A DNA stretch of 13,048 bases from Alphaproteobacteria bacterium. GTDB taxonomy: Bacteria > Pseudomonadota > Alphaproteobacteria > RF32 > CAG-977. Of the stretch, positions 2,019 to 4,289 are shown in pieces. The stretch covers positions 1-13,048 of the forward strand of contig JAFVEJ010000164.1 of assembly GCA_017476085.1 (NCBI GenBank). The letters are read 5' to 3'. Below the pieces are notes generated by a model. That model worked only from the letters and a program-made list of their open reading frames with translations, searched no databases and was not told the origin of the DNA. A program made the translations under genes and the position numbers. The stretch's first letter is position 1, and every line of letters starts with the position of its first letter.

Positions 2019-4289
2019 ATGACAAAAACTTTAAAGAATTTAAAGAATCAAGATTCCGAATATTTCTCCGAAAAAAGAGTTTCCGTTTCCGGCGGAACAG
2101 TGCTTTTTTTAGTTTTTAACATCCTTTTAATTACAGGATTCTGCAAATTTTCTTTTTATGTTCTGAAGAATCACCGCAGCGCCGTAGAGAGAGACACTTT
2201 AGTTAAAACGTATGTCGATGTTCAGCCTTATAATTCCGGGAAAAGAGCTTATACCGCTTTAAATATTCAGGACAAAACCGCTCCGGCGCCGCTTTTTACT
2301 AATAAAGAAACAACGGTATTTTCTCCTTTAGCCGAGAAAAAAGAAATTCTTGCCGAAAAACAAAAAAATGTTCCGAGATTTCCCTCGATCGCCAAATCTG
2401 CCAAAAGGATGCCGGTCATCCGTTCAACAAAGCAGCCGCCCGCCGATCTTCCTCTTTCTCAAGAAGTTCCCATAATAAAGAGTATGGCACAAAACGATTC
2501 TCCGGCGGTTTCCTTGGATAATTTGATGGTTTCCGGCTTGAATCTTTTGGACGAATCGGAAAAAACCATAGCTTCATCGGAAATTCTTCTGCGGGAAACT
2601 TCCTCTTCCGAACAAGAAATCATTAAAAACACAGAACTTCCCCTTCAATCTGAAAGCAAAGAAAAAGAAACTTTTGCCGGAAATTCTCCGATAAAAAAAG
2701 AATCTGTTGAAAGAAAAAGCAACAACGAAACCCGATGGGTTGACGTGGCCGAACTGCGGCGCAGACTGGCATCGCTTACGGCGCAGGCTCCTTCTCCGAA
2801 GGATGATGAGCGCTTACAACAAAACGCCGCTTTATTGCAAATGAACAACGCGAAACAAATTGCTTCGTCGGACACAAAAACAATTTCCGATATTCAGGAT
2901 GACGCTCCTTTAAATAATAAAGCATCCCCCCTGCAACAAAAAGATTCGCCGCAAAAAACTTCGAAGGAAACGTCGGATAACAAATCATCCGCTGTTGCAG
3001 CGACTGCTCTTCAAGAAACAAAAGGGGAATCACCTTCTTCCGTTCAAATTGCCGTCGTTCAGGATGTTCCTTTTGCCGGAACGGCTCAAGTGCCCGATTC
3101 AAATCAGAATAACGCTTTCCTTCCCAATCCGGCGCATAACGCGACTTTAGCCGGAAATTCACCCAGTCTGTGGAAAGTTGCGAAAATTAAAGAACCCGCT
3201 TCCGGTAATTTAACAGATACGCCAAAAGAAGAAAAAAAACAAATTGCCGAAAAAAAGGTTGAATCGGAGGACTTGCCTCAAACAACAGGGAAAGAAACCA
3301 TTTACCGCAATGGCCGAGCTGTGGCTTCGATACAAAATCAAGAAAAAAAATCTCTTAATTGGCTGGATCGGCAAAAAGCGGCCGTATGGACAAGTATGGC
3401 CCAATCGGACACGCCTTCCGTCTGGTCGTCAGCGACAGAAACGGCATCCGCCTCTTCCGACAAAGCCCGCGCCTTCCGAGTTGCGGAAGAACAGCAATCG
3501 ACAGAGACGGAAACAAACGTAATTAATTCCGCTCCCGTGCGTGTCGTCACTGAAAGCGCGCAGCCTGAAGCAAAAGAAAATCCGCTGCTTCTTCCGTTAG
3601 GAACTCCGACCGCGACACAAACCATTCCGACAATAAATTCTCCGGTTCTGGCAAATGCGCCGTCATCGCCCGTCAATTCGAATAAAACGACCGCCGTTGA
3701 AACGGAAAAACAAGAAAAAACAAATCCCGCTGCGGAAGAAGGATTAATGAACAAATTCTTTTCTTTCTTCGGAAAAACGGAAAACACAAACAGTCTGCCA
3801 AACATCGGCTCCGGCAATCCGCTTCCCGAAGAAAATTCGAAACAGGAAAATAAATCGCTTTCAGATAAACCGAAAGCAAAAGAAAAAGATTCATCCGCCA
3901 TTCCTCTTCCTTCAAAGACAAAGACCGAAGGAAAACAAATCATTCCGACGGAACTGCGTCTGACTTTCAAACCGAACAGCACGGAAATGTCCGCGCAATC
4001 AATCAAATGGATTAAAGCTTTCGGACAAAAAGCCAAAAAAGACATTCAAAATGCTGTTGAAGTTCGAATGAGCAACATGGATCCAACTTTACAAAACAAA
4101 CGATTTGCTATAATCCGAAGCACTTTGATCGGCGTCGGAATGGAAAATGTCCAAATTATTCCCGTTATGACGGATCGAACGCCTCATACCGTTGTTTTGC
4201 GTATGATTGTTTTGCCTGAAGAAGGTTATACAGAATATACAACCGAGAACAGCGGTGTCAAAGAACGCTTATATTACAAGCAATGGTAA
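2019..4289 (+). CDS. Membrane-anchored disordered protein with degenerate OmpA-like C-terminal domain
   Basis: I do not recognise this 756-residue protein as a named family. Residues 1-25 are polar, 26-49 form one transmembrane segment, and about 50-638 are low-complexity, rich in Ser, Lys, Glu, Pro, Thr and Gln, and probably disordered. Residues about 639-730 resemble an OmpA-like peptidoglycan-binding domain: FKPNSTEMS matches the usual F-x-P-x-S opening and RFAIIRSTLIGVGM matches the RAxxVxxxLxxxGV helix, keeping its arginine. The loop with the usual TD-x-x-G and N-x-x-LS motifs is shortened and altered, so binding is uncertain. The layout predicts an inner-membrane protein whose long periplasmic tether reaches the cell wall. 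The start is fixed by an in-frame stop 15 bases upstream, with no good Shine-Dalgarno. It lies between divergent virB genes and the pilus operon, and could serve either. Function is inference. Confidence 0.75.
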   Translation: MTKTLKNLKNQDSEYFSEKRVSVSGGTVLFLVFNILLITGFCKFSFYVLKNHRSAVERDTLVKTYVDVQPYNSGKRAYTALNIQDKTAPAPLFTNKETTVFSPLAEKKEILAEKQKNVPRFPSIAKSAKRMPVIRSTKQPPADLPLSQEVPIIKSMAQNDSPAVSLDNLMVSGLNLLDESEKTIASSEILLRETSSSEQEIIKNTELPLQSESKEKETFAGNSPIKKESVERKSNNETRWVDVAELRRRLASLTAQAPSPKDDERLQQNAALLQMNNAKQIASSDTKTISDIQDDAPLNNKASPLQQKDSPQKTSKETSDNKSSAVAATALQETKGESPSSVQIAVVQDVPFAGTAQVPDSNQNNAFLPNPAHNATLAGNSPSLWKVAKIKEPASGNLTDTPKEEKKQIAEKKVESEDLPQTTGKETIYRNGRAVASIQNQEKKSLNWLDRQKAAVWTSMAQSDTPSVWSSATETASASSDKARAFRVAEEQQSTETETNVINSAPVRVVTESAQPEAKENPLLLPLGTPTATQTIPTINSPVLANAPSSPVNSNKTTAVETEKQEKTNPAAEEGLMNKFFSFFGKTENTNSLPNIGSGNPLPEENSKQENKSLSDKPKAKEKDSSAIPLPSKTKTEGKQIIPTELRLTFKPNSTEMSAQSIKWIKAFGQKAKKDIQNAVEVRMSNMDPTLQNKRFAIIRSTLIGVGMENVQIIPVMTDRTPHTVVLRMIVLPEEGYTEYTTENSGVKERLYYKQW

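What the first reader, a model, noticed from the sequence alone, without database searches (positions are those of the whole stretch)
2019..4289. Giant disordered tether with membrane anchor and OmpA-like end between a secretion and a pilus locus
Seen: one TM segment, about 590 low-complexity residues and a C-terminal domain with an F-x-P-x-S opening and an RAxxVxxxLxxxGV-type helix. Known: IM-anchored OmpA-like domains (MotB, some TssL) fasten machines to peptidoglycan. Inferred: this protein anchors the pilus or the secretion complex to the cell wall, and its shortened loop may mean altered or lost ligand binding. I know of no named pilus or VirB component with this layout.
Basis: partly seen in the sequence, partly recalled or inferred. 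Interest (0 to 1): 0.75.

Follow-up and report, generated by a model that had tools for sequence, protein, structure and literature searches.

The report
Pilus secretin scaffold with OmpA-like end
Alphaproteobacteria with small genomes, several of them from animal guts, carry at the head of a type IVB pilus gene cluster a long protein with one predicted membrane segment and a predicted OmpA-like end in which the usual wall-gripping residue appears replaced, so it likely holds the outer-membrane pilus pore in place rather than simply gripping the cell wall.

Summary

The 'tether' has a block as conserved as the folded domain, while protein length is free (260-841 aa). The peptidoglycan-binding Asp is Ser in 50 of 50 close members (Asp in 3 of 28 family-wide); the partner Arg is always kept. 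Many distant relatives start with signal-peptide-like sequences, so inner-membrane anchoring looks clade-specific.

Best reading (inferred): a GspB-like scaffold whose OmpA-type domain docks on the TcpQ-PilN secretin, as DotK/Lpg0657 contact DotD. Side finding: 17 of 23 anchor genomes carry a giant VirB10 (open frames 833-2,838); the three read show 17-residue repeats.

The parts
2019..4289 (+). Whole gene, 756 aa: N-terminal hydrophobic segment, long linker with short conserved motifs, C-terminal OmpA-like domain
   Evidence: ORF; 50 homologues; conserved synteny
2100..2156 (+). Hydrophobic segment, residues 28-46, probably an uncleaved inner-membrane helix in this clade
   Evidence: Kyte-Doolittle 2.09; AF2 helix 25-66; 48 of 50 close members have such a window, 2 lack that part
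2139..2222 (+). Conserved juxtamembrane stretch FCKFSFYVLKNHRSAVERDTLVKTYVDV, residues 41-68; Cys42 nearly invariant
   Evidence: A1 conservation; block 41-60 mean 0.82
2217..3935 (+). Linker, residues 67-639, mostly predicted disordered
   Evidence: pLDDT mostly under 50; composition
2733..2768 (+). Conserved linker motif RWVDVAELRRRL, residues 239-250 (helix from 243 in the model)
   Evidence: W240, D242, L246, R247 nearly invariant in A1 and invariant in A3; helix 243-256
3165..3185 (+). Linker motif SLWKVAK, residues 383-389, the PW/LWxxA motif shared with distant relatives
   Evidence: 15 of 27 proteins against shuffle mean 0.63; post hoc pattern
3351..3425 (+). Most conserved linker motif SLNWLDRQKAAVWTSMAQSDTPSVW, residues 445-469
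   Evidence: 15 invariant columns in A1; block 441-460 mean 0.85
3579..3602 (+). Linker motif NPLLLPLG, residues 521-528, the LLxPL motif
   Evidence: 18 of 27 proteins against shuffle mean 0.57; post hoc pattern
3939..4211 (+). OmpA-like domain, residues 641-731
4071..4073 (+). Ser685 at the place of the canonical OmpA ligand Asp
   Evidence: Ser in 50 of 50 close and 20 of 28 family members; Asp in 19 of 20 ordinary OmpA domains of kin genomes; register from alignment
4101..4103 (+). Arg695 at the place of the canonical OmpA ligand Arg
   Evidence: 28 of 28 and 50 of 50
4176..4178 (+). Arg720 in the shortened beta3-beta4 loop
   Evidence: 28 of 28 and 50 of 50
4227..4286 (+). C-terminal beta hairpin and terminal Trp756
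   Evidence: strands 737-743 and 746-752; Trp in 49 of 50 and 26 of 28
4456..5112 (+). tcpQ, 218 aa, secretin partner
   Evidence: PF10671 2.6e-15; matches lipoprotein 9u5s_R, E 1.4e-12
5096..6700 (+). pilN, type IVB secretin
   Evidence: PF00263 1.1e-10; TIGR02520 3.5e-76 but 256.8 bits under the 287.65 cut-off; BfpB 9u5s_A 3.2e-51
6715..8100 (+). pilO
   Evidence: PF06864 4.7e-19
8042..9490 (+). pilP-like, 482 aa
   Evidence: TIGR03021 3.7e-4, 21.5 bits under its 34.65 cut-off
9545..11233 (+). pilQ, assembly ATPase
   Evidence: PF00437 1.6e-65
11257..12345 (+). pilR, platform protein
   Evidence: PF00482 3.6e-23
1398..1703 (-). virB2-like pilin, divergent neighbour
   Evidence: PF04956 6.8e-6, 26.7 bits just under the 27.9 cut-off
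841..1131 (-). virB3-like
   Evidence: 96 aa, two hydrophobic segments; no Pfam match; name from position and recall
3..905 (-). virB4, N-terminal part
   Evidence: TIGR00929 1.4e-11, 43.4 bits under its cut-off; homologous full gene in L003 has PF03135 1.3e-13

Best explanation
This gene encodes a 756-residue protein with one N-terminal hydrophobic segment, a 573-residue linker that carries conserved short motifs, and a C-terminal domain predicted to have the OmpA fold, and it likely acts as a scaffold that would hold the outer-membrane secretin of a type IVB pilus and tie it to the inner membrane. Inferred mechanism: (1) the hydrophobic segment stays in the inner membrane (clade-specific); (2) the linker crosses the periplasm, its conserved motifs (RWVDVAELRR, LWKVAK, NWxDRQxAAVWTSxSQxDxPSVW, LLLPLG) acting as docking sites for pilus proteins; (3) the OmpA-type domain, having lost the ligand Asp and both long ligand loops, binds the TcpQ-PilN secretin ring instead of, or in addition to, peptidoglycan. 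The domain would thus work like DotK/Lpg0657 on DotD, and the whole protein like GspB/OutB on its secretin. Shown by calls: the domain order, conservation, gene order, co-occurrence and the residue at the ligand place (by alignment). Predicted: the fold and membrane topology. Untested: every binding step.
For: OmpA fold: AF2 pLDDT about 90; the 50 entries listed by VIA, which I read from their titles as OmpA-type; the same for the 260-aa relative L072. Homology beyond fold: profile-profile match to 19 ordinary OmpA domains of kin genomes, probability 93.9, 76 columns; outside the family the A6 profile's weak hits include OmpA proteins, 3 of 3 checked of 7 weak places. Pilus link: directly upstream of tcpQ in 9 of 9 near loci where that side is held and 14 of 18 distant loci; PilO in 22 of 23 anchor genomes against 18 of 362 others, the 23rd (G263) being marginal (E 8.9e-4) and lacking TcpQ and PilN too. 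In four genomes the anchor relative is unlinked from pilus genes, yet they keep the pilus: G366, G077 and G196 have PilO, TcpQ and PilN elsewhere and G011 has tcpQ to pilR on another contig (L120). Lost ligand Asp: Ser in 50 of 50 and Asp in 3 of 28, against Asp in 19 of 20 ordinary OmpA domains of kin genomes. Secretin context: TcpQ and PilN match the two 17-chain partners of solved entry 9u5s. Conserved linker motifs. [quoted passage not shown] CpaD, predicted OmpA-like, is modelled around the Tad secretin (PMC13170226, passages); GspB (PMC9239104, abstract and section 17). Complementary pattern: 7 of 8 TcpQ proteins found in no-anchor loci carry an extra STN-like domain (seen by eye; Pfam STN reaches only L116, E 8.4e-4, under its cut-off); an HMM of those seven finds no other ORF at domain E below 1 in the loci searched, anchor loci included.
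Against: No binding data, and no complex prediction could be run. Arg695 and Arg720 are invariant, and three members (L068, L070, L071) have Asp at the ligand place, so peptidoglycan binding is not excluded. Many distant relatives look secreted rather than membrane-anchored, and L072 has a short linker, so bridging to the inner membrane is not a constant feature of the family. Co-occurrence and synteny may reflect shared descent rather than interaction. A promoter-like site (consensus match only) sits in the 166-nt gap before tcpQ, so the gene need not be strictly co-transcribed. virB2 is as constant a neighbour as tcpQ in the near loci (9 of 9 each where that side is held). The STN contrast is mainly a contrast between lineages.
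Confidence: 0.5

Rival explanations
1. Canonical wall anchor: the OmpA-like domain still likely grips peptidoglycan through Arg695 and Arg720 with a changed ligand mode, fastening the pilus machine to the wall as MotB does for the flagellar stator.
For: Fold match to MotY, Pal and MotB; both arginines invariant, 28 of 28 and 50 of 50; hydrophobic segment plus linker layout; CpaD of the Tad pilus is proposed to bind peptidoglycan (PMC13170226, passages).
Against: Ligand Asp replaced by Ser in 50 of 50 and non-Asp in 25 of 28, while 19 of 20 ordinary OmpA domains in kin genomes keep it; both ligand loops shortened; DotK and Lpg0657 show that such domains can serve as protein-binding parts (PMC7511231, passages).
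Confidence: 0.27
2. Part of the VirB type IV secretion system, or a coupling piece between that system and the pilus, whose genes lie on either side.
For: Divergent virB2 next door in 9 of 9 near loci with that side held and 10 of 18 distant loci, two more (L063, L068) ending at a contig edge there; 16 of 16 anchor genomes picked for the test have VirB10 and 15 of 16 VirB8, and 18 of the 23 anchor genomes of the class sample have VirB10; VirB10 frames of 800 aa or more only in anchor genomes among listed rows; in G030, G275, G180 and G351 virB10, virB8 and the anchor are on one contig within about 30 kb.
Against: Same strand and adjacent to pilus genes; L069 keeps tcpQ next door without virB2, and L067 and L072 lack virB3/virB4 there; 105 of 123 VirB10-positive genomes have no anchor and 5 of 23 anchor genomes gave no VirB10 match.
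Confidence: 0.13
3. General periplasmic OmpA-like protein with no dedicated role in either machine, kept nearby by descent.
For: In L074-L076 the relative sits away from pilus genes, beside genes that look like murG and comF (by eye); L064 has no pilus neighbour; linker length varies widely.
Against: Those four genomes still hold the pilus genes; very strong co-occurrence; conserved linker motifs.
Confidence: 0.08

Closest known systems
DotK and Lpg0657 (Dot/Icm type IVB secretion core complex)
   Same: Peptidoglycan-binding-domain fold without several key ligand residues, sitting in an outer-membrane complex and contacting DotD (PMC7511231, passages). In Foldseek a chain of the Dot/Icm outer membrane cap, 9ngu_Ah, matches the L072 model (E 1.9e-4); which protein that chain is was not checked.
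   Different: Short proteins without a long linker (recalled); part of a secretion system, not of a type IVB pilus.
GspB/OutB (type II secretion scaffold)
   Same: Single membrane segment, length varies between species, periplasmic domain binds the secretin and links it to the inner membrane and wall (PMC9239104, abstract and section 17).
   Different: Its secretin-binding part is the HR domain, not an OmpA-like domain; a different system. No sequence relation was tested.
CpaD (Tad pilus, Caulobacter)
   Same: OmpA-like fold predicted, needed for the pilus, modelled around the secretin (PMC13170226, passages).
   Different: 225-aa outer-membrane lipoprotein, OmpA-like part N-terminal, proposed to bind peptidoglycan; Tad, not type IVB.
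MotB/PomB/MotY/Pal (OmpA-like peptidoglycan binders)
   Different: Ligand Asp and loops changed here; Pfam OmpA does not match.
BFP secretin complex 9u5s (BfpB with a small lipoprotein)
   Same: TcpQ and PilN of this cluster match its two chains.
   Different: The anchor and its domain profile gave no sequence match to any PDB chain, 9u5s included.

Membership tests
OmpA-like domain superfamily | beta-alpha-beta-alpha-beta-beta fold | tested here: met
   Predicted model only:
OmpA-like domain superfamily | Recognised by Pfam PF00691 | tested here: not met
   0 matches for the whole protein and in 0 of 10 domain sequences at E up to 10; PF00691 found 5-9 other places in each of 6 kin genomes but not this gene
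OmpA-like domain superfamily | Sequence homology by profile | tested here: met
   hhalign probability 93.9 against 19 OmpA domains; A6 profile picks OmpA proteins as weak hits, 3 of 3 checked of 7
Canonical peptidoglycan-binding OmpA/MotB/Pal | Ligand Asp in the TD motif | tested here: not met
   Ser in 50 of 50 close members; Asp in 3 of 28; control 19 of 20
Canonical peptidoglycan-binding OmpA/MotB/Pal | Ligand Arg in the RAxxV helix | tested here: met
   28 of 28 and 50 of 50
Canonical peptidoglycan-binding OmpA/MotB/Pal | Actual peptidoglycan binding | not testable with these tools
   Needs a sacculus pull-down
MotB/PomB stator | Neighbouring motA/exbB-type channel gene | tested here: not met
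   Immediate neighbours are virB2 and tcpQ in the near loci and in most distant loci; genomes were not searched for motA
DotK-like lipoprotein | Lipobox N-terminus | tested here: not met
   Cys42 is nearly invariant but is preceded by Phe, not Gly/Ala/Ser, in the window protein (sequence; lipobox rule recalled)
GspB/OutB | Single membrane segment | tested here: met
   in the window clade
GspB/OutB | Periplasmic HR domain | tested here: inconclusive
   No family match; absence from structural lists proves nothing
Type IVB pilus cluster (neighbourhood) | TcpQ, PilN secretin, PilO, PilQ ATPase, PilR platform present in order | tested here: met
   PilN and PilP score below the NCBIfam cut-offs
Type IVB pilus cluster (neighbourhood) | Prepilin gene present | tested here: inconclusive
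   None noticed in the window; pilin-like genes next to relatives' clusters in L060, L065, L108 (by eye)

The most novel reading that the evidence does not exclude
The protein is the physical coupler of a two-machine envelope complex: one end holds the type IVB pilus secretin and the conserved linker motifs engage the neighbouring VirB system with its giant VirB10, so that pilus contact and secretion are mechanically joined.
Probability: 0.12. Interest if true: 0.88.

Novelty: new variant of a known kind. Interest (0 to 1): 0.6.

Why it matters
This is a part of a type IVB pilus cluster in small-genome alphaproteobacteria for which our family and paper searches gave no name, and its OmpA-type domain has lost the standard ligand residue much as DotK and Lpg0657 did in Dot/Icm. 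If the docking reading holds, OmpA domains were turned from wall binders into secretin binders in a pilus as well as in a secretion system, and a simple pull-down with TcpQ/PilN would show it. The co-occurrence with a giant repeat-bearing VirB10 makes a pilus-secretion link testable.

Tried and rejected
Sequence-only look-ups of the whole protein or the domain profile: 0 matches in the PDB, 0 in Pfam and NCBIfam, and no OmpA in Pfam for any of 10 members at E up to 10 (three unrelated families rang weakly). A viral-contig scan with PilN found no relative. The idea that virB2-virB3-virB4 stand alone as a hybrid mini-pilus with the secretin was dropped: the genomes tested have VirB10, VirB8 and VirB6 elsewhere. 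The idea that the linker is just a tether was dropped. Tandem repeats in the window: none. HR-domain or other secretin-binding proteins were not seen in the structure lists; that is no evidence of absence. The seven weak places in G037, G709, G426, G477 (two), G340 and G475 were not counted as family members; three were read and are ordinary OmpA proteins, four were not checked. L077 (G263) gave no match with the full profile and was dropped from the distant members, leaving 18.

Counting notes. Alignment A1 is the window plus P0002-P0050; P0001 was left out as near-identical. A2 left out L006 (truncated at a contig end). A3 left out L006 and L009. The 28-row family set is A2 plus the 18 distant members; the 27-row linker set is A3 plus the same 18. 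The motif patterns were written after seeing the sequences. The first control count of ordinary OmpA domains (18 of 19 Asp) used domains picked by a pattern that itself asked for those residues; it missed L030. The recount by an HMM over all 20 loci, without that pattern, gave Asp in 19 of 20 and Arg in 20 of 20 unique domains and replaces it; the hhalign comparison still rests on the 19. The 800-aa limit for 'giant VirB10' was chosen after seeing the rows; the row list was cut at weak matches; the longest listed frame in a genome without the anchor is 736 aa; one anchor genome (G174) has 669 aa and five (G040, G047, G161, G263, G366) gave no VirB10 match. Of 18 genomes with PilO but no anchor, 12 were opened; one (G258) ends inside pilO. 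The printed output was cut; one search gives the TcpQ and anchor results for all 17 loci, with no anchor match in any. The Fisher tests ignore shared descent.

Papers: PMC7511231, PMC13170226 and PMC12114550 were seen as passages; PMC9239104 as abstract, outline and section 17; all others as search listings only. The searches listed no paper that by title or abstract start describes this protein; the library lacks most subscription journals.
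Full report
What is there. The window holds an ORF at 2019-4289 (+) of 756 codons. To its left, on the other strand, lie a virB2-like gene (PF04956 6.8e-6, just under cut-off), a virB3-like gene and the start of virB4 (TIGR00929 1.4e-11). To its right, on the same strand, lie tcpQ, pilN, pilO, pilP, pilQ and pilR. The left cluster is probably chromosomal: in L003 it is followed by ATP synthase genes.

The protein family. A search with the last 137 residues found 50 proteins, E 9.5e-81 to 7.8e-37, of 707-841 aa except one of 432 aa, P0012. 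Ten loci in named genomes followed; record titles name roe deer, water buffalo and sheep rumen and horse faeces for four of them. A profile of the domain then found 23 of 385 alphaproteobacterial genomes, with open frames of 277-866 aa. A broader profile found strong matches in 2 of 378 genomes sampled across the phylum, both already known; 6 more genomes had weak ones, and the three places checked were ordinary OmpA proteins.

The ligand site. In the alignment the canonical Asp falls on Ser685 and the canonical Arg on Arg695. Ser is found in 50 of 50 close members, and over the 28-row family the place holds Ser 20, Asp 3, Pro 3, Asn 1, Gly 1. Arg695 is kept in all, as is Arg720 in the short last loop. 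Ordinary OmpA domains of kin genomes, counted without selecting for these residues, have Asp in 19 of 20 and Arg in 20 of 20. Standard peptidoglycan binding is therefore unlikely but not excluded. The precedent is close: DotK and Lpg0657 in Dot/Icm have this kind of fold, lack key ligand residues and contact DotD (PMC7511231, passages).

The linker. Residues 67-639 are mostly predicted disordered, yet conservation is strongly blockwise. Residues 441-460 average 0.85, as high as the folded domain, while 301-340 average 0.18. Two motifs reach distant members: [SNDTLA][PL]WxxA in 15 of 27 and LLxPL in 18 of 27, against about 0.6 from shuffled linkers (patterns chosen after inspection). Total length falls to 260 aa in L072. 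So length is free and the motifs are constrained, which fits docking sites better than a pure spacer.

The N-terminus. In the window clade 48 of 50 have a membrane-type segment and the other two lack that part. L062, L068, L070 and L071 also look membrane-anchored. L060, L061, L064, L065, L067, L069, L072 and L074-L076 look like cleavable signal peptides by eye. This fits a periplasmic C-terminus throughout, and inner-membrane anchoring only for some.

Which machine. tcpQ follows directly in 9 of 9 near loci with that side held and 14 of 18 distant ones; virB2 precedes in 9 of 9 and 10 of 18, two of the 18 ending at a contig edge there. Of the 23 anchor genomes 22 have PilO; of the 362 others 18 do. 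Of 20 genomes with strong PilO (E below 1e-100), 19 have the anchor, and the 20th (G258) ends inside pilO at a contig edge. In four genomes the anchor relative lies away from the pilus genes but the pilus is kept: G366, G077 and G196 (PilO, TcpQ and PilN) and G011 (cluster on another contig, L120). Of 18 genomes with PilO but no anchor, 12 were opened: no anchor match near their pilus genes. In 7 of the 8 whose TcpQ was found, TcpQ carries an extra STN-like domain; an HMM of it finds nothing in the anchor loci. I read this as a hint that the anchor took over part of the secretin-partner role.

Mechanism. TcpQ and PilN match the two 17-chain components of solved entry 9u5s, secretin BfpB and a small lipoprotein. 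I infer that the anchor's OmpA-type domain docks on this ring, that the linker motifs hold further pilus parts, and that in this clade the membrane segment ties the ring to the inner membrane, as GspB does in type II secretion (PMC9239104, abstract and section 17). CpaD of the Tad pilus is a further proposed OmpA-like secretin partner (PMC13170226, passages). None of the binding steps is shown.

A wider context. Sixteen anchor genomes were tested by family: 16 have VirB10, 15 VirB8 and 15 VirB6-type proteins (13 over cut-off). In the class sample 123 of 385 genomes have VirB10, among them 18 of the 23 anchor genomes. Its open frame is 800 aa or longer in 17 genomes, all anchor-bearing; the 18th anchor genome has 669 aa (list cut at weak matches). 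Three of these proteins were read: 2,831, 2,355 and 1,541 aa (in the last, G275, a separate 1,044-aa ORF just upstream starts like the N-terminus of the others, by eye), and all show a 17-residue glycine period. In G030, G275, G180 and G351 virB10, virB8 and the anchor lie on one contig within about 30 kb. A direct link between the two machines through this protein is the boldest reading not excluded.

Noticed in passing
L138:3015-11510 (-), L141:9268-16335 (+), L140:1276-5901 (-): Giant VirB10 homologues of 2,831, 2,355 and 1,541 aa with a 17-residue Gly-rich repeat period; open frames of 800 aa or more seen only in anchor-bearing genomes among listed rows.
   Followed up: partly
L140:5904-9038 (-): In G275 a separate 1,044-aa ORF upstream of the VirB10 ORF starts like the N-terminus of the giant VirB10 proteins of L138 and L141 (by eye), so that protein is encoded in two pieces there.
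   Followed up: no
L137-L138 with L060 (G030), L139-L140 with L070 (G275): VirB6-like genes, virB11-, 10-, 9- and 8-type genes, secreted VirB5-like proteins (by eye), virB4/3/2, the anchor gene and the type IVB pilus cluster lie on one contig stretch of roughly 50 kb.
   Followed up: partly
L062, L065, L070, L071: Three to five virB2-type ORFs stand in tandem, divergent from the anchor gene.
   Followed up: no
L060:18335-18892, L065:119-673, L108:1774-4060: Type IV pilin-like genes with (R)SMIEMLGVLAI(I/V)GVLS signal motifs, four in a row in L108, next after pilR; none noticed in the window.
   Followed up: no
L110-L113, L116-L118: TcpQ of type IVB pilus clusters without the anchor carries an additional STN-like domain.
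   Followed up: partly
L074:8137-9630, L075:8216-9598, L076:8551-9918: In three 0.9-Mb genomes the anchor relative sits beside genes that look like ftsW/murG and comF (names by eye) instead of pilus genes.
   Followed up: partly
L003:1492-6375 (-): Four secreted-looking 225-261 aa proteins and a 636 aa protein follow virB4; no convincing Pfam match; VirB5-like by eye.
   Followed up: no
window 2142-2144: Cys42 at the end of the hydrophobic segment is nearly invariant in close members although it lies in no standard lipobox.
   Followed up: no
window 12407-13048 (-): Partial gene that looks like accA (recalled from sequence, no call), convergent with pilR; in L001 and L003 an M3 peptidase gene is there instead.
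   Followed up: no
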